Notes under the pieces: generated by a model
What the model saw: the letters and a program-made list of their open reading frames with translations, nothing else
Told to the model about the DNA's origin: nothing
The model's database searches: none
Program-made: the position numbers and the translations under genes
Shown: in pieces, positions 1 through 32,577 of the stretch
Numbering within the stretch: position 1 is the stretch's first letter
How the letters are laid out: every line of letters begins with the position of its first letter
Origin: Aphanomyces cochlioides
Taxonomy: Eukaryota; Oomycota; Saprolegniomycetes; Saprolegniales; Verrucalvaceae
Reading direction: 5' to 3'
Length of the DNA stretch: 64,000 bases
Assembly (NCBI GenBank): GCA_019828595.1
Contig: JAHQRK010000007.1
Coordinates: 1-64,000 of the forward strand

Positions 1-288
1 CCCAAACCCCCAAACCCCCAAACCCCCAAACCCCCAAACCCCCAAACCCCCAAACCCCCAAACCCCCAAACCCCCAAACCCCCAAACCCCCAACCCCCAA
101 ACCCCCAAACCCCCAAACCCCCAAACCCCCAAACCCCCAAACCCCCCCCCAAACCCCCAAACCCCCAAACCCCCAAACCCCCAAACCCCCAAACCCCCAA
201 ACCCCCAAACCCCCAAACCCCCAAACCCCCAAACCCCCAAACCCCCAAACCCCCAAACCCCCAAACCCCCAAACCCCCAACCCCCCCC
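1..288. repeat. Telomeric repeat array, (CCCCCAAA)n
   Basis: A near-perfect tandem array of an 8-bp unit, five C then three A (TTTGGGGG on the other strand). Small irregularities occur: one unit with a missing A near 91-97 and a run of nine C near 140. The C-rich strand reads 5' to 3' into the chromosome, the orientation of a left chromosome end. The array ends at about 288, where the subtelomeric module starts. Short stretches of the same unit recur at 711-731 and, degenerate, near 1216-1245. Confidence 0.85.
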
Positions 289-705
289 GAAACCCCAAAC
301 TTCCATGGAACTTCCTCCCCAAGGAACTTCCCCCATGGAAATCCCCCCAGGGGCCCCCGAAATCCCCCCGGGGCCCCCAAATCCCCCTTATCCGGATATC
401 CGGATAAAGCTGGCAAGCTTCTGAACTGACTAACTGATCCCCTCAGTCACTTCATGCTTGCACAATCAGCGACATAACTCACACTGAAGAAGGCAAACGA
501 AAGGACCAATGAAATTAGATTACGAGTGCCTACAACCAATTAAAACGAGCCATGGGAGGCTCCGCCTCCCAGACCCTCCGGACGCCCTTCGGGCGTGACG
601 CGCTAAAGCGCGTGGTCGCTTCGCTCCGTAGTTGTAGCGTTAATTTTTAATTCACCCCTTTGTGACAAAGCTCGCTTCGCTCGCGTGGTCCCGTCGCCTC
701 TCCCT
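289..705. repeat. Subtelomeric module, copy 1
   Basis: A GC-rich module of about 400 bp that recurs at 806-1213. It contains the NcoI-like segment TTCCATGGAA, a perfect 20-bp palindrome at 388-407 (TTATCCGGATATCCGGATAA), and a run of short stem-loops at about 553-640: GGAGGC/GCCTCC, ACGCCC/GGGCGT and GCGC/GCGC. It ends with CTTTGTGACAAAG and a segment resembling CTCGCTTCGCTCGCGTGG. No convincing coding frame exists. Copy 1 carries a 19-bp C-rich insertion near 361-380 that copy 2 lacks. Confidence 0.8.
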
Positions 706-727
706 GACTACCCCCAAACCCCCAAAC

Positions 728-773: not shown

Positions 774-805
774 TGAAACCACCAACCCCCGAAACCCCCA
801 ACCCC

Positions 806-1213
806 GAAACCCCTAAACCCCAAACTTCCATGGAACTTCCTCCCCAAGGAACTTCCCCCATGGAAATCCCCCCAGGGGCCCCCGAAATCCCCCTTATCCG
901 GATATCCGGATAAAGCTGGCAAGCTTCTGAACTGACTAACTGATCCCCTCAGTCACTTCATGCTTGCACAATCAGCGACATAACTCACACTGAAGAAGGC
1001 AAACGAAAGGACCAATGAAATTAGATTACGAGTGCCTACAACCAATTAAAACGAGCCATGGGAGGCTCCACCTCCCAGACCCTACGGACGCCGTTCGGGC
1101 ATGACGCGCTAAAGCGCGTGGTCGCTTCGCTCCGTAGTTGTAGCGTCAATTTTTAATTCACCCCTTTGTGACAAAGCTCGCTTCGCTCGCGTGGTCCCGT
1201 CGCCTCTCTCTGC
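806..1213. repeat. Subtelomeric module, copy 2
   Basis: A second copy of the module at 289-705, offset by about 506-525 bp. It differs at a handful of sites, for example CTCCACCTCC instead of CTCCGCCTCC, and lacks the 19-bp insertion. The 20-bp palindrome recurs at 894-913. The hairpin run is preserved apart from changes that weaken two stems. Confidence 0.8.
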
Positions 1214-1241
1214 TTACCCCCAAACACCCAAACACCCCAAA

Positions 1242-1297
1242 CACCCTTTGTGACAAAGCTCGCTTCACTCGCGTGGTCCCGTCGCCTCTCCCTGCTT
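1242..1297. repeat. Subtelomeric module, partial copy 3
   Basis: Only the last about 55 bp of the module is repeated here, starting at CTTTGTGACAAAG and running to the CTCTCCCTG end. It is preceded by degenerate telomere-like CCCAAACACC repeats. It marks the inner edge of the subtelomeric array; the first transposon starts 50 bp further on. Confidence 0.7.
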
Positions 1298-1349
1298 ACC
1301 CCAAACCCCTAAATATTCTTCAAAACATCTTTGATTGAAATTTATACTA

Positions 1350-2881
1350 CAGTCTACTCTACCAGTACGGACCCCTCCAAGAATATAAATTTTTAAAACT
1401 ATTTGGGATGGAAGGGACAATATTTTGGAGGTTTGACTGCATAACTTCACTTCTGTGTTTGAACGAGATGTGTGCAGTATGAACACCACAGTCCTGCTAC
1501 AAAGTTTAGCGAGACATTGGACCTGACAGGCATGTCGTTTCAGGGGTCTTACAGATTCAAAAATTCAAATGAATGGCGGCAAAATAGCGATAGACAAGCC
1601 TCATATTAGCTTTCATTGTCATTTTACCAGAATGAGACAACATTTGACCATCAAACAGAAGATCGCAATCGTCAACATGCATGAGCAGAATCCACATTGG
1701 GTCCGAAACGACTTAATCTCCTGGGCATCTCGTGAGTTTATGCTAAGTAGACCACCAACAAAGTCAACAATAAGTAGAATTTAGCAAGCCAAGACGAAGC
1801 TGCTGTCATTAAAAAGAGATGAAATTCAAGAAAGCAGGAAGCAATTCCACCCTTTTACTTCACAAGACTTGGAAACTCGACTTTGGACATGGTTTCGAGA
1901 AAAGGAGAAAGACCAAATTGAATTATCTGGGCCAGTTATCACCGTTAAAGCGGAAGCAATTCTCCAAGAGCTCGGTGCTGAGTCGAACTTGAAATTGTCG
2001 AGCGGGTGGCTCACTGGTTTCAAGTCCCGCCACAACATTCGTGAGTACGTGCTACACGGTGAGAGTGGAAGTGCTGACGTTGACGGTGCACAGAAGGCGA
2101 TCCCTGAGCTGCTCAAGTTGACACAATTATACGAGCTCTGTGATATCTACAATTGTGATGAGACGGGATTGACGTGGCGATATACATCAAGCCGAACGCT
2201 GGCAACAAAGCCAAGACCGGGAAAAAAGAAGCCAAAAAGTCGCGTGTCTGTCTTGCTCATGGCTAATGCTGACGGCACGGACAAATTGCCTCCCCTTGTC
2301 ATTGGATCTGCAATGCGACCACGCTGCTTCAATGGTAAAAGACCAAGTGAATGTGGTTTGTCTTACCAAAGCAACAAAAAGGCATGGATGACACGTGCAT
2401 TGTTTGAGGAATGGCTTCAATATTTGAATGAGCGGATGACTCGGGAGAAGAGAAAAATACTGTTGCTACTTGACAATATGTCAACACACAAGGAGATCAA
2501 GCCATTGAGTAACATTGTGCTCCATTACCTTCCCGTGAATACCACATCTTTGCTCCAACCACAAGATGCTGGTATCATAGCGGCGGCAAAACGACGTCAC
2601 AAAACAAAGCTATTGCAGAACGTGGTTGCCAAGTCGGACGAGGGCGATGACCATCCATATCATTGTACCTTGCGTCAAAGCCTACAATGGTTCTATGAAG
2701 CTTGGAATGAAGTTTCAGCCCAGACCATCACAAACTGCTGGAAACATGTTCGGTACGTGGCTCATTATGAGCCAGAAGAGCTGATCTGACCTTGAAAATC
2801 GACAATGCATATTCCTCAAATATATATTAAAGTTTAGAGTTTATTTATTTGTATGGGAGTCCTTACTTGTAGAGTAGACTG
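1350..2881 (+). mobile_element. Pogo-like DNA transposon with intact ends (pogo A)
   Basis: The left end CAGTCTACTCTAC at 1350 matches the reverse complement of the right end at 2881, and the match continues imperfectly for about 27 bp (roughly 23 identities). A TA dinucleotide flanks both ends (1348-1349 and 2882-2883), the target duplication typical of the Tc1/mariner/pogo superfamily. The element is 1532 bp long and holds one transposase frame that is interrupted once. Confidence 0.85.
1569..2789 (+). pseudogene. Pogo-type DDE transposase, one in-frame stop
   Basis: One reading frame runs from 1569 to 2789 and is broken only by a TAG at 1782-1784. The N-terminal part holds a helix-turn-helix (TIKQKIAIVNM...) and a CENP-B-like segment (SSGWLTGFKSRH). 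The DDE core shows the three acidic residues expected: NCDETG, LLLLDNMSTHK and LQPQDAG. Length and order fit pogo/Tigger transposases that cut and paste the element using its terminal repeats. A product starting at 1869 would keep the catalytic core but lose the first DNA-binding helix-turn-helix. It is therefore either recently dead or read through. Confidence 0.85.
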
Positions 2882-25486: not shown

Positions 25487-27061
25487 GTGCCTTTTCCACT
25501 TTCAAATTTGTTCCCCGAAGGATTGGCCATGGGGTTTAAGCTCAACAATGTCGCGCACATCTTCGCGCTGCTCTGTGCGATCAATATGCTCAACTACATT
25601 GATCGAGGTATTATCCCTGGCGCCCCCGTCGAGTTTCAAGCCTTCGTGCAGCAGACGATTGAGAAACAATCGTTTCTCAATTCAATCACCAATTCGACAG
25701 ACCGCCATGACACCAGTCATGTGAGTACGTACATCGGTGTTCTTGTCTCGTCTTTCATTGCCTCGTACTCGATCTTCATTTGCATCTTCGGTTACATGTC
25801 CATGACCCGTCGTCCCTTCTTGTTGTCAGCAATTGGCCTTTTCATTTGGGTGATTGCTATTGTGTTGTGCGGTCTTGCCAAGCCTATCAAGAGCTTCTAC
25901 CTCCTTCTTGCCGGTCGTCTCCTCAGTGGTATTGGTGAATCCTCTTTCCACGCTACGACTCCTCCATTTATCGATGAATTTGCCCCAACCAAGTCGCGCA
26001 CCCTGTGGCTCGGATTTTTCTACTGCGGTATTTCCGTCGGCACGGCTCTCGGCTATGGTTACGGTGGTGCCTTGGCCCATGTTTGGGACTGGGCTTTCTA
26101 CATCACAGCTATCATCATGTTCCCAATGGCTTATGCCTGCTGGCAATGGATTCCTCTGCACTATGACTACCCACTTGCCCATGGTGCTCCCAAGGAGCTT
26201 GAAGGCATTGAAAGTCGCCCAAGCCTTGCGGGTCCTGGTAGCTTGAATCAAGCTGAAGTGCAAGCTGAAGTTTCCAAGGAATTGAACCACAACCCGTCCG
26301 CAATCCAAGATATCATTGTCATTGTCAAAGAACCCATGTTTATCTCGGCTACGTTGGGTGTGGCTGCCTATTCATTCACTCTAGCTGGTATGGGTGCATT
26401 CATGCCTGCCATTTTGATTGGCTCGGACATTTTGGGCGAAGGCATTGCTTCGTTGGCTTTTGGTGGTCTTACAGTTGTCGCTGGTGTCATCGGTTCGCCT
26501 CTAGGTGGCTGGCTCGTCGATCGCCAAAGCCGTGGCCATGAAGAAGACGAAACCTACCGATGCTACATTGCTGCTCGCCAGATGATTGTGTGTATGACCA
26601 TTGGTGTCATCTTTGGTTTCCTTGCCTTAGCCTTCATGGGTAATACTGCCATCTTCATCGTGTGCATGCTGTTGGCTCTCATCTTTGTCTTCACAACTCA
26701 AGCTGCACAAACTCTCGTTATCCTCTACTCCGTTGCCAAGCATCGTCGTGGTTTTGCGATGGGTCTCAACACACTTTTCCTTCACGTTCTTGGTGATGTC
26801 CCCTCGCCAATTGTCCTCGGTGCTCTTAAGGATGCTTGGGCCCCGAACTGCGGTAGCGTGTGGAACGAAAAGAACGAAGCCAAGTTAGACCCCAACTGCT
26901 ATCTTGACAAGTCAGGCTTGCGCAACGTCCTTCTCTTCTCTGTTGCATGGCTTGTGTGGTCTGTCCTCACGTGGACAGCTTCGTACTTCATTGCCCGCCG
27001 CCGACTGAACAATGCGAAGAAGGATTTGGCTCTCGCTGAAACCCCCATCCGATCTGAATAA
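25487..27061 (+). CDS. Spinster-like major facilitator transporter
   Basis: A single-exon gene for 524 residues with about 12 membrane segments. The start region (IFALLCAINMLNYIDRGIIP) is the first membrane helix with the NYxDR motif of spinster (SPNS) proteins, and GRLLSGIGESSFHATTPPFI matches the conserved helix 4-5 loop; GGWLVDRQSRG is the loop after helix 8. Family members move sphingolipids or lysophospholipids across lysosomal or plasma membranes; the substrate here is inference. The ATG at 25529 (MGFKLNN) is an equally plausible start, which would remove 14 residues before the first helix. A central loop (about residues 235-270) is hydrophilic. Confidence 0.88.
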   Translation: MPFPLSNLFPEGLAMGFKLNNVAHIFALLCAINMLNYIDRGIIPGAPVEFQAFVQQTIEKQSFLNSITNSTDRHDTSHVSTYIGVLVSSFIASYSIFICIFGYMSMTRRPFLLSAIGLFIWVIAIVLCGLAKPIKSFYLLLAGRLLSGIGESSFHATTPPFIDEFAPTKSRTLWLGFFYCGISVGTALGYGYGGALAHVWDWAFYITAIIMFPMAYACWQWIPLHYDYPLAHGAPKELEGIESRPSLAGPGSLNQAEVQAEVSKELNHNPSAIQDIIVIVKEPMFISATLGVAAYSFTLAGMGAFMPAILIGSDILGEGIASLAFGGLTVVAGVIGSPLGGWLVDRQSRGHEEDETYRCYIAARQMIVCMTIGVIFGFLALAFMGNTAIFIVCMLLALIFVFTTQAAQTLVILYSVAKHRRGFAMGLNTLFLHVLGDVPSPIVLGALKDAWAPNCGSVWNEKNEAKLDPNCYLDKSGLRNVLLFSVAWLVWSVLTWTASYFIARRRLNNAKKDLALAETPIRSE

Positions 27062-27702: not shown

Positions 27703-30700
27703 ATGTCGACGGTTACAATGATGGAGCCGTTTCGTTTTGTTTGTCGGACGCATGCTATGCCTCTCAAAATTACTTTGATGCACTCGCTGCTGGAGCAAAG
27801 ATCGACTCGATCCTACGGGAGTGAATTCCAGGAGACTGATTTATTCCTTCGCGGTTTACACAGTCGATACACACCCAGAAAGAGGAAATCACGACGATTA
27901 CTCCGGCTCCTTGCACTCACTGCCGTAGCAGCAAGCGTTGTCGCTCTTATTGCAATAGCAGCAGTCACAGGGTCTTTTACCCACTACGAAGATCTTGTTG
28001 CACAAGGTAATTCAATGTCAATCTTCTAAGAAACTAATGTCTCCAAGCTCCTAAGGCCCCAATCGTAACATTGCAAGCATCGACTGCCTGTACGAAAGTA
28101 AGTGTTGCGGGAGATGCGACGTTTTGTATTGTTGGATCTACGTGCGGAGCTGATGCCGGAACTCGATGTCCAGCCAAGGGCGCAGTAACTTCCATAGATT
28201 GTCGGCAAGGAATCCTAAGTTTCGTCAACTTGACGACGTGTATTGCGCCGTACAATGCAATTTGCTCATGGTTACCGCAAGGTGGAAAAGGATGTGTCTA
28301 TAACATTCCCAAACAAGCCATTGAGAAACCGTCAGACACTGCCACCAAACAACCGACTACAAAACCACCAGGTACGAGGACGACAGCAGATTGTCTAGTT
28401 TACGACTCCAATACAGGACCGACAATACCACCGCTCTCTTCGAATGACCCCCAGATATCCAACGTCGTTCTTACACCTACTCCAACCTCACTTCCAACAA
28501 CCGCCAGTCCTGCTCTCGCGCCGCCTTCCACTCCCCCCGTCCCACCCCCGACCACAACAAACCCTCCCATCACTCCTAGTCCTACACCACAAAGCACAAC
28601 AAAATTGCCGGACACACAATCAACTAGCTCCGGGGCTGCATCTCAGTCAGATTCAGGTCTTATAGTTGTATCGAGAACTACATCGACGCCAACGACGACT
28701 GCACAACCAACAACAAGAAGTCCGACGACAACTCTGCGCGTTGGCTCAGATAGCGTTCTGCTTCCTGCATCTACAACAACGCCACTACCAACCACTGCAC
28801 GCCCAGTTCAAAGTCCCACAGCTCAATTACCAACTACTTCAATACCAGCATCCCCAACAACTTCTCCAGCACCAACCAATTCACCAACAACAACTACAAC
28901 ACCGACCGTAAATCCAACTCCCGCGCCAACGTCAAAACCGAGTAGACCTCAAGCCACATTTGTGGCTGTCGTCGGGGGGAGCAAGACTACCACGGTTGTA
29001 CCGACAACAGTCAATCCTACGAAGAGTGCTCAGATACCAGCGCCAACGACAGGAACGCCCTCAACGAATCCACCCACAACTCAAGTCCCAACAACACAAC
29101 TTCCAACAACAACTTTATCGCCCGTTAGTTCCACGCCTGCTCCTACTTCAGTAAGCCCAACGAAGAGCATACAGACACCAGCGCCAACGACAGGAACGCC
29201 CTCAACAAATCCACCCACAGCCCAAGTCCCAACAACACAACTTCGAACACAGCTTCCAACAACAACTTTATCGCCCGTTAGTTCCACGCCTGCTCCTACT
29301 TCAGTAAGCCCAACGAAGAGTGCTCAGACGCCAGAGCCGACATCACACACAACTCAAGTCCCATCATCAACTTCCTTCCTCGTTACCGCAACGACTACAG
29401 CCAGCCCTACGACTAGCGTAACAACGCCATGGCCAACAAAAGCTACTGCCCAAACAAGTCAGACTACTACTCAAGTCTCTACGATGCAAATTCCAACGAC
29501 ACAGTCAGTCCAGACGACACTACTTCCAACCACAACGTCATCGCCCATCAGTCCCACGCCTGGCCACACTACAATCAACCCAGAAATAAACGTACAGACG
29601 CCAGAGCCAACTACAATAGCTTCAACAACGAGCCAACCAACAACCCAAATCTCAACAACAGAACTCTCAGCGACACAACCAGTACACACGACACTTCTTC
29701 CAACGACGACTAAGTCACCACTCAGTCTTACACCTACTACATCTGGTTCCCCCACATCGCAAACCACAATGACATCTACCCCTCCACCAGTAACCTCACT
29801 GCCAACAACGACACCCGTAGATGATTCAAAGCCCGCTTCGCAGCCATCAACTGAGCGTCCTTCTTCCTCCCAATCCATTACGCCACCAGTTCAGCAACCT
29901 TCAACAACAACAAACAGCAACTCTCCATCGTCAACTGACCTTCCAACAAGTCCCAGCGCTCCCTCAACATCAAATCTACCCGTAACCACCACAACTGCAA
30001 CATCTTCGACGCAGGCACCAACAATCACAAGCTCTCCAGAACCAACCATGGAACCAACCATGGAACCAACTACTATTACCGCAACAGTCCGACTTTCACC
30101 AACGCCGACTTCAACGATAACATCAAAGCCGACAACACCTCAAGCTACGTATGTGGCTCTCCCAATCACCAACAAACCGACCTCAAAAACAGCTACGACC
30201 CTCCATCCAACGACGATGGAGCCAACCCCAGCGCCAGCTACAGTCGCCCCTCTGACAAACCAACCCACGACACAAATTTCTACAACAGCTTCTTTGAATC
30301 CGACACCAACAACACCTCTTCCCCCCACACCACCAACAAACACGAGTGACTCGACAATATCAACAACTCAACCTGCATCGAGTCCATCAACACAAGCTCC
30401 AGTACCTCTCAGTCAACCAACAAGCCAAATAGTAACAACTGAAGTTCCAACGACCGCTTCCTTCAGCCCTGCAACCACAACACCTGCAACACCAGCACCT
30501 GTCACCACAACGACACCAGAAACTACCACGCCAACTACTATGTTTCCGGACACTCCAGTTCCAACAGACACCAGCTCTCCCCAAATAAACACTCCGGTGC
30601 CCCAGCAAACGAGCTCGCCAGCTCCTGAGCCTATAACTACTTCTGCGCCTCAATCACCTAGCCAAGCCATGACCTTAAATCCACCTACGAGTCAACCAAC

Positions 30701-32577
30701 TTCTGCTCCTGCTACAGTCCCTCCTCCAATCACGAATGCACCTACAATCCAAGACCCATTAACAACCAGTACTTCCAACAGTCCTGCTACGACTTCACCA
30801 GAGATACAACAGCCTTCTACTACACTCACCCCTCATCCTACTTCCACTTCAACCTCCGAAACGACCTCTTATCCCCCCAGGCCAACAACCACAAGTATCA
30901 GTGATTCTGAGCCTGCATCGCAAACACCCGCAAAAACTCCCCCTTCACAGCAACCAAACACCACGCATGATGAACAAACACCTTCACCAACTGTGAGCAG
31001 CAACGCTCCATTACCATCTGAAACACCGTCTCCTCTGACGACGACTGCAGTATCAAGTCTTCCAACTACACTCGATCCACATACCAGGCAACCCACTACG
31101 GTAGTTTTACCAGTGGATCATGCCACAACTATAGCTCCAACAACCTCCTTCAGCCCTACAACAACTCCAACAGATGCATCAAGTCTGACTACCTCTCGAG
31201 CCCCCCAGCCGACAACACAATCTGCTGCTGAGCCAATTTCCACATCTCCTCGGCCAACAACTTCATCGACCCCAGAATCAGCATCCACTTCCCTTCAACC
31301 AACAACCACGTCTCCACCAACGACATCGTCGACACCAGAGCCAACATCCATGTCTTCTCCTCAGCCGATGACTGAATCGTCTCCAAAGCCAACAACCACG
31401 TCTCCACCAACGACATCGTCGACACCAGAGCCAACGTCCATTTCTTCTCCTCAGCCGATGACTGAATCGTCTCCAAAGCCAACAACCACGTCTCCACCAA
31501 CGACATCGTCGACACCAGAGCCAACGTCCATTTCTTCTCCTCAGCCGATGACTGAATCGTCTCCAAAGCCAACAAGTACTTCTCTTCAACCAACAACCAC
31601 GTCTCCACCAACGACATCGTCGACACCAGAGCCAACGTCCATTTCTTCTCCTCAGCCGATGACTGAATCGTCTCCAAAGCCAACAAGTACTTCTCTTCAA
31701 CCAACAACCACGTCTCCACCAACGACATCGACGACACCAGAGCCAACATCCATTTCTTCTCCTCAGCCTATGACTGAACCTCTGCCTACCACTCAGCCAT
31801 CAACCCAAACTGCCCCATCAGTGCAGCCGGAAACTACCTCGTCGCCAGCTTCCAGAAGATGCTCATACGTGGATGACAACGACGGGATCTTGAGAGCAAT
31901 GGACAGAGATTCAAGCTGCTCTGTGAGTTTGCCTGAGCTTTTGGAATACATGTACGCGCGTGAAGAAGCTGAAGCGAATACATTTGAAGATGCTACGAAG
32001 AGGGAGATGAACGCGACGATCGCTCGCTTTGAATTCCAAATTGAGTGCATTCGAAGTTACTACGCCTCTGTGAGTACTTCTACTCTTGTTTAATTGACGC
32101 TTTACTCTTGTAGAACCATACAATATCAAGCCACACCGAGCTGGACCAAGTTTTGGAGCTGCTGCATCAGTCTTGCACCCCACCGAACGCAACTAGCACT
32201 GCACAACCCACGACATCCACACCAGAGGCTTCACCCAACACGAAGTGCTCCTTTGTGGATGATAAATGGGGTATACTCCAAGCTATGGACACCGACTCAA
32301 GCTGCTCAGTGAGCTTGTCGGAGCTCTTGGCTTTTGTCCGTTTGGAGAAAGACATCAAGATAGCAGCCCTCCAAAATACAACACAAGTATTCATCACGTC
32401 CACAGTGGCAAGCTATGATCTTCCACCAGAGTGTGTCCAGCGAATTAATAGCTCGGTACGTCAATCGTGTGTACTTTCATTGAAATTGTCTTTTAGGACA
32501 TCTTTAAACAAACCATATCAACCCATCACGATCTAGAGTCTCTGCTCGCCACGTTGCGGCAGAACTGCGGAGTTTAA
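27703..32577 (+). CDS. Mucin-like type II membrane protein with two EF-hand modules
   Basis: Four exons (27703-28006, 28048-32069, 32114-32455, 32497-32577; introns of 41, 44 and 41 bp) give 1582 residues. A basic stretch (RKRKSRR) precedes one membrane helix at about 66-90, which suggests the N-terminus is inside and the rest outside. A Cys-rich domain of about 75 residues follows. Then come about 1,050 residues dominated by Thr, Pro and Ser, suited to dense O-glycosylation. The C-terminus holds two similar modules, each with an EF-hand-like loop: DRDSSCSVSLPE near residue 1387 and DTDSSCSVSLSE near 1501, with flanking cysteines. It is probably a cell-surface or cell-wall protein. Function unknown. 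Confidence 0.8.
31299..31760 (+). repeat. Minisatellite inside the mucin domain
   Basis: A 90-bp unit encoding 30 residues (PTTTSPPTTSSTPEPTS...SPKP) is repeated about five times, the later copies carrying a short extra segment (PTSTSLQ). The copies are nearly identical, so repeat number probably varies between strains. Confidence 0.8.

What the first reader, a model, noticed from the sequence alone, without database searches (positions are those of the whole stretch)
1..288. Unusual telomere unit TTTGGGGG
The terminal array is made of an 8-nt unit with five G and three T on the G-rich strand. Plants and many stramenopiles use TTTAGGG, and ciliates use TTGGGG or TTTTGGGG; I know of no lineage with TTTGGGGG. 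If this is a true chromosome end, the telomerase RNA template must have changed, and a G5 run could alter quadruplex formation and shelterin-like binding.
Basis: partly seen in the sequence, partly recalled or inferred. Interest (0 to 1): 0.75.

Follow-up and report, generated by a model that had tools for sequence, protein, structure and literature searches.

The report
Water-mould telomeres made of TTTGGGGG
The first 286 bases are a real chromosome end from a water mould of the Aphanomyces group, capped with the repeat TTTGGGGG instead of the TTTAGGG reported for its relatives, which implies that its telomerase now copies a different template.

Summary
Bases 1-286 are 36.4 copies of CCCCCAAA (TTTGGGGG on the outgoing strand) at base 1 of a 3,046,785-base contig. 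The assembly (76.2 Mb, 94 contigs) is Aphanomyces cochlioides, an oomycete: two contig lengths equal those listed for A. cochlioides proteins. Of 188 contig ends I read 139. Of these, 32 carry the same array at the extreme end, with the G-strand outward; none carries it inward and none carries TTTAGGG. Three contigs, including this one, have it at both ends. In 31 arrays 1141 of 1259 units are exactly C5A3. (CCCTAAA)x3 has no match in the assembly. A shared subtelomeric block lies behind many arrays (49 of 49 matches within about 16 kb of an end, uniformly oriented). The genome has a TERT gene. So this is a genuine, probably telomerase-made, telomere with a unit that I could not find in print; the reports I saw give TTTAGGG for other oomycetes. 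CCCCTAAA pairs (12 sites, control 0) hint at a TTTAGGG > TTTAGGGG > TTTGGGGG route. I did not find the telomerase RNA, so the template change is inferred. The kind is known, the variant new. G5 is no record: AATGGGGGG is published.

The parts
1..286 (-). terminal telomere array; TTTGGGGG on the - strand (running out of the left end), CCCCCAAA on the + strand
   Evidence: TRF 36.4 copies, 96% matches; unit count; same array at 32 of 139 contig ends read
281..299 (.). junction of the array with the subtelomeric block; degenerate units CCCCCCCCGAAA, CCCCAAA
   Evidence: sequence; unit scan
288..720 (+). first copy of the subtelomeric repeat block shared by many chromosome ends
   Evidence: 49 matches in the genome, this one included and some partial, each within about 16 kb of a contig end and in one orientation relative to that end (read by eye)
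711..726 (+). short internal telomere-type stretch (two units CCCCCAAA) at the end of the first block
775..825 (+). degenerate telomere-like units (CCCCCGAAA, CCCCGAAA, CCCCTAAA, CCCCAAA) at the start of the second block
815..1313 (+). second, about 93% identical, copy of the subtelomeric block, with a partial third piece at 1244-1313
   Evidence: blastn of 287-760 against 761-1320: 93.3% over 445 bases and 93.0% over 71 bases; genome search rows C67:815-1225 and C67:1244-1307
1869..2789 (+). first transposon gene next to the telomere: Tc5-type transposase ORF (DDE_1, HTH_Tnp_Tc5)
   Evidence: Pfam E 2.2e-45 and 1.6e-11

Best explanation
Bases 1-286 are the left telomere of a chromosome of the oomycete Aphanomyces cochlioides. 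Its native telomere repeat is (TTTGGGGG)n, with arrays of about 290-390 bases in the assembly. Shown here: terminal position, uniform outward orientation, uniform unit, shared subtelomere, a TERT gene, and no TTTAGGG array. Inferred: a telomerase whose RNA template reads like CCCCCAAA plus a few more bases of the repeat adds it, and the template changed from the TTTAGGG-type template expected of other oomycetes, possibly through an eight-base step TTTAGGGG (one more G) followed by A to G.
For: 32 of 139 ends read (188 exist) carry the array at the extreme end, 0 in the inward orientation, 0 with TTTAGGG. C4, C45 and C67 have it at both ends. Exact units are 1141 of 1259 in 31 arrays. The assembly holds 1100 matches (579 + 521, overlapping within arrays) to a 29-base pattern of the unit and 0 to (CCCTAAA)x3. 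The subtelomeric block has 49 of 49 matches near ends, uniformly oriented. TERT: Telomerase_RBD over Pfam's cut-off on contig C34; RVT_1 in neighbouring open frames, one over and one below the cut-off; the best solved-structure matches of one exon are telomerase reverse transcriptase chains, E 1.3e-18. An internal run of three units with the same five C lies near base 4,378,560 of contig C1. CCCCTAAACCCCTAAA: 12 sites, 0 for the backward control; one (C36:301-316) lies at the inner end of a terminal array.
Against: No telomerase RNA with a matching template was found. No raw reads, Bal31 or TRAP data. 107 of 139 ends read have no array (three of them read as N); expected of a fragmented assembly, but not shown to be only that. 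One of the two Telomerase_RBD matches has a TAA inside the matched stretch, which may be an intron edge; I did not model the gene. A search for the POT1 family found nothing, but it rang in none of its controls either, so it says nothing. There is no general rise of variant units toward the inner side of the arrays (14 of 29 arrays cleaner distally, 15 of 29 cleaner proximally, p 0.96).
Confidence: 0.92

Rival explanations
1. The array is a real telomere but its unit is misread: the true unit is TTTGGGG or similar and the assembly has a systematic homopolymer error.
For: The arrays hold some units with other run lengths, and contig ends have thin coverage (inference). C4A3 occurs 25 times in 1259 units; C3 left alone has 5 C4A3 units against 26 C5A3.
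Against: The run length is sharply peaked: C5A3 1141, C4A3 25, C6A3 5 of 1259. Copies away from the extreme ends have the same five C (C3 from base 2456 on; C1 near 4,378,560; window 711-726).
Confidence: 0.04
2. The array is a satellite or microsatellite at which the assembler broke, not a chromosome end.
For: Short runs of the same unit occur in prokaryote genomes (28 stretches). Of the 16 that I looked at, three (L185, L208, L209) sit at the very end of their contig stretch and several more within about 600 bases of one, so assemblies do break at this unit and the unit alone does not mean telomere.
Against: Breaks at a satellite should leave arrays in both orientations; here 32 are outward and 0 inward, while of the three prokaryote cases one (L185) is inward. 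The flanking block is subtelomeric in 49 of 49 matches.
Confidence: 0.02
3. The ends are real and carry TTTGGGGG, but are maintained by recombination, not by a telomerase with a changed template.
For: Subtelomeric blocks are nearly identical between many ends (most rows 94-99%, range 87-100%), which suggests exchange between ends. No telomerase RNA was found.
Against: TERT parts are present. The arrays are homogeneous, and several sit directly on sequence that does not look like the block (C8, C12, C23, C34, C45, C56; by eye), as after addition by telomerase.
Confidence: 0.04

Closest known systems
Oomycete TTTAGGG telomeres (Phytophthora parasitica and P. nicotianae, PMC7290008; Pythium oligandrum, PMC7003069; proposed for oomycetes, PMC11139960; passages of all three)
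   Same: same phylum, short G-rich terminal repeat, arrays of tens of units; in P. parasitica next to shared repeats
   Different: unit TTTAGGG (7) against TTTGGGGG (8); no (CCCTAAA)x3 in this assembly
Ciliate telomeres TTGGGG and TTTTGGGG (PMC9498494, passage)
   Same: only T and G, no A, in the G-strand unit
   Different: different run lengths (T2G4, T4G4 against T3G5), another lineage
Algal telomere AATGGGGGG (PMC7658794, passage; the species Cyanidioschyzon merolae is recalled)
   Same: a G run longer than four
   Different: G6 and A in the unit; another lineage
Lineage-specific telomere units of Allium, Cestrum and Genlisea (PMC12133305, passages) and Bombus (PMC10767889, passage)
   Same: a lineage-specific change of the repeat; in the plant cases matched by the template of the telomerase RNA
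   Different: there the RNA was found (plant cases); here it was not

Membership tests
telomerase-maintained telomere | array at the extreme end of many independent contigs | tested here: met
   32 of 139 ends read; both ends of 3 contigs
telomerase-maintained telomere | G-rich strand runs 5' to 3' toward the end | tested here: met
   32 outward, 0 inward of 139
telomerase-maintained telomere | one homogeneous short unit | tested here: met
   1141 of 1259 units C5A3 in 31 arrays
telomerase-maintained telomere | TERT gene in the genome | tested here: met
   domains only, full gene not modelled, one matched stretch holds a TAA
telomerase-maintained telomere | telomerase RNA with a matching template | tested here: inconclusive
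   promoter-plus-template pattern searches and five inspected sites gave no convincing gene; only some template and promoter forms were covered
telomerase-maintained telomere | Bal31 sensitivity, 3' overhang, TRAP activity | not testable with these tools
   needs DNA and extract
canonical oomycete telomere (TTTAGGG) | unit TTTAGGG at contig ends | tested here: not met
   0 of 139 ends; (CCCTAAA)x3 0 matches
ciliate-type telomere (TTGGGG, TTTTGGGG) | unit T2G4 or T4G4 | tested here: not met
   C5A3 in 1141 of 1259 units; the host is an oomycete

The most novel reading that the evidence does not exclude
The Aphanomyces lineage switched its telomere from TTTAGGG to TTTGGGGG by two changes in the telomerase RNA template, through TTTAGGGG. 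Remnants of the middle step survive as CCCCTAAA units at the inner side of one terminal array, in subtelomeres and inside chromosomes, so one genome records a telomere-repeat switch.
Probability: 0.45. Interest if true: 0.65.

Novelty: new variant of a known kind. Interest (0 to 1): 0.5.

Why it matters
Oomycete assemblies have been scanned for telomeres with the motif TTTAGGG (PMC11139960, passage); such a scan would miss the ends found here (inference). A unit that differs from that of relatives narrows the hunt for the oomycete telomerase RNA, and gives a case in which a switch of template, telomerase and end-binding proteins can be followed between related species. A G-strand of T3G5 should fold into very stable quadruplexes (inference), so it also tests how end-binding proteins cope.

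Tried and rejected
Telomerase RNA. I looked for isolated template sites AAACCCCCAAA (69 + 165 matches, with duplicates from the variable gap; the list is cut and ends on contig C14, so the rest of the genome was not seen). Then for template cores near a reversed tRNA B box (consensus recalled), the element seen upstream of the U6 genes: TGGGGGTT at 70-130 bases, 0; GGTTTGG at 70-130, 0, backward control 5 and 8; TGGGGGT at 120-180, one match, control 0, whose printed stretch does not look like a telomerase RNA to me; GGTTTGG at 110-170, 118 matches, control 1 and 2, of which those listed are copies of one tandem repeat on contig C15. Of the isolated sites I read five: one is a run of three telomere units at a junction in what reads by eye as a copia fragment; all five lie in stretches with an open frame of 76-133 codons, none has a reversed B box within about 200 bases upstream, and one (L181) has a TATA 55 bases upstream. 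None was accepted. Shorter templates, other distances and other promoters, in particular the USE-type promoter by which telomerase RNAs of some stramenopiles were found (PMC9498494, passage), were not covered. No Rfam family reached its gathering score in the window.

Gradient of variant units along the arrays: none (14 against 15 of 29 arrays); only C18 right and C26 right show clustered variant units at their inner side among the stretches printed.

POT1 by Pfam: uninformative. The same unit in viral contigs: 0. In prokaryote genomes: 28 stretches, of which I looked at 16; short runs next to ordinary sequence, some at or near contig ends.

Quadruplex energies were computed with RNA parameters only and are not used as evidence.

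The published A. cochlioides genome paper (recalled, MPMI 2022) is not held under the DOI that I recalled, so I cannot say whether it mentions the repeat.

Full report
What is there. The window begins with a tandem array, 1-286, of CCCCCAAA on the + strand, 36.4 copies, 96% matches. 31 units are exactly C5A3, two are C5A2, one is C9A3. CCCCCAAACCCCCAAA is expected 0.00 times by chance in the window and is found 30 times. At about 288 the array gives way to a G+C-rich block with degenerate telomere-like units, repeated at 815-1313, and then to transposons, the first a Tc5-type transposase at 1869-2789.

Where it comes from. The window is bases 1-64000 of contig C67 (3,046,785 bases) of an assembly of 76,215,617 bases in 94 contigs. 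A transporter gene in the window (25487-27061) has its closest relatives in Aphanomyces: 98% identity to A. euteiches, 74% to A. astaci. Two further relatives, named Aphanomyces cochlioides, are listed with a longest contig of 2,102,146 and 4,030,798 bases, which are the exact lengths of C7 and C23 of this assembly. So the genome is that of A. cochlioides (Oomycota, Saprolegniales). That identification rests on the two length matches and on the protein similarity.

Other ends. I read 139 of the 188 contig ends: 93 left ends (all but that of C2) and 46 right ends. The right ends were not a random choice: one search took large contigs and contigs with a subtelomeric match. Of the 139, 31 begin with a clean array and one more (C24 right) with an interrupted one. 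All 32 are outward, 0 inward, and 0 of 139 show TTTAGGG (tests: at least four copies of the unit, or three of TTTAGGG or its complement, in the first 120 bases). Three of the 139 read as N and cannot be judged (C33, C49, C59 left). C4, C45 and C67 carry the array at both ends. In the 31 clean arrays, leaving out the first unit of each and the array of C24 right, 1141 of 1259 units are C5A3, 25 are C4A3, 14 are C5A2, 10 are C9A3, 5 are C6A3, and the rest other forms. This count reads the variant units CCACCAAA and CACCCAAA of C18 right and C26 right as two small units each. The fifteen left arrays read to their inner end are 287-387 bases long; C78 left was read for only 120 bases. The whole assembly holds 1100 matches (579 + 521) to a 29-base pattern of the unit and none to (CCCTAAA)x3.

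Subtelomere. The block at 288-720 has 49 matches in the genome, itself included and some partial (a lower bound). Reading the list by eye, all 49 lie within about 16 kb of a contig end, and all are oriented the same way relative to that end. At other ends, for example C8, C12, C23, C34, C45 and C56, the array is joined directly to sequence that does not look like this block (by eye). That fits addition of new repeats to broken or unprotected ends (inference).

Telomerase. The RNA-binding domain of telomerase is found on contig C34 at 1,444,186-1,444,302 and 1,444,545-1,444,694 (E 9.3e-8 and 4.7e-6, both over the cut-off; the first stretch has a TAA inside). Of five open frames of this locus scanned, one matches Telomerase_RBD, two match RVT_1 (E 1.9e-9, over the cut-off, and E 3.2e-4, below it) and two match nothing. 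One frame, which I read by eye as holding motifs B' to E, matches telomerase reverse transcriptase chains in the Protein Data Bank, best 7qxa at E 1.3e-18 (that 7qxa is human is recalled). I did not model the whole gene. The telomerase RNA was not found in several pattern searches or among five inspected sites. The changed template is therefore an inference from established knowledge: the repeat is a copy of the RNA template, and in the plant cases reviewed in PMC12133305 (passages, and section 6 in full) unusual repeats had a matching RNA. Telomerase RNAs have been reported from some stramenopiles (PMC9498494, passage); I saw no sequence of them.

Is the G5 real. The run length is sharply peaked at five, and copies away from the extreme ends have five too: C3 from base 2456 on, window 711-726, C1 near 4,378,560. 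Short repeats of this very unit also occur in prokaryotes (28 stretches, 16 looked at), some at contig ends and in mixed orientation, so the unit alone proves nothing. It is the position, the uniform orientation and the number of ends that do.

Possible route of change. Subtelomeres carry units CCCCTAAA and CCCCGAAA besides CCCCCAAA: 14, 8 and 56 in the scan of 15 left ends, where many copies come from one duplicated block and are not independent; CCCCAAA was found 15 times. CCCCTAAACCCCTAAA occurs at 12 places in the genome and its backward control at 0; five of the 12 lie within 25 kb of a contig end, and one of these lies at the inner end of the terminal array of C36. The three eight-base units fit TTT-N-GGGG. 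A path TTTAGGG to TTTAGGGG to TTTGGGGG is a simple reading. Slips of telomerase or mutation of old repeats could also make them, and no TTTAGGG array was found to anchor the first step.

Known or not. Passages that I saw give TTTAGGG for Phytophthora and Pythium (PMC7290008, PMC7003069) and call it proposed for oomycetes (PMC11139960). The string TTTGGGGG together with 'telomer' is in 53 open-licence PMC papers; the 40 listed include none whose title suggests a telomere of this unit, and I opened none of them. One search (140 papers, 25 listed) gave no better lead. The 32 papers with 'telomer' and 'Aphanomyces' include none whose title is about Aphanomyces telomeres; I saw passages of three of them, PMC7290008, PMC7003069 and PMC9584435, and none of those passages gives an Aphanomyces telomere repeat. 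The TeloBase article does not hold 'Aphanomyces', 'oomyc' or 'TTTGGG' in its text, but its database was not at hand. The published genome paper of this species is not held. So 'not found in print' goes no further than these searches.

Verdict. A genuine chromosome end with a telomere unit new to me and not found in the library as searched; a new variant of a known kind. The surprise is moderate: telomere units do change in single lineages. It is useful, because it makes the oomycete telomerase RNA easier to find and shows that a TTTAGGG scan would fail for this species.

Noticed in passing
L033, L034, L035 (G000:C3:1181827+, C1:3434030+, C3:1673640-): The three U6 snRNA matches over the gathering score (of 6 matches) have a tRNA-type B box in reversed orientation upstream: at -62 in L033 and -65 in L034, and by eye in the variant GGTTTGAACC at a like place in L035. 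In L034 it belongs to an intact tRNA-Lys(TTT) gene, head to head with U6 and about two bases from it. This resembles the trypanosomatid arrangement (recalled) more than a USE/TATA type-3 promoter.
   Followed up: partly
G000:C15:1085733-1461372: A tandem array of a unit of about 1,180-1,186 bases (118 pattern matches, all on one strand, list cut) that contains a tRNA-type B box motif.
   Followed up: no
G000:C1:4378360-4378760 (L179): A short interstitial run of three telomere units between what reads by eye as a copia fragment and other sequence, as if a break had been healed with telomere repeats.
   Followed up: partly
L106 (C18 right end), L112 (C26 right end): Variant telomere units CCACCAAA and CACCCAAA, mixed with normal units, cluster on the inner side of these two arrays.
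   Followed up: partly
window 28071-32093: An open frame of 1340 codons rich in Thr, Pro and Ser with internal tandem repeats of 90, 111 and 153 bases, mucin-like.
   Followed up: no
window 1869-23680: The first 24 kb inside the telomere hold transposon genes of several kinds: DDE_1/Tc5, copia gag, DDE_Tnp_4, and a weak DDE_3 match below its cut-off.
   Followed up: no
L184-L211 (prokaryote genomes): Short (CCCCCAAA)n runs in several bacterial assemblies and one archaeal assembly, 9 of the 28 stretches in one Bacteroidota MAG; some lie at or near contig ends.
   Followed up: partly
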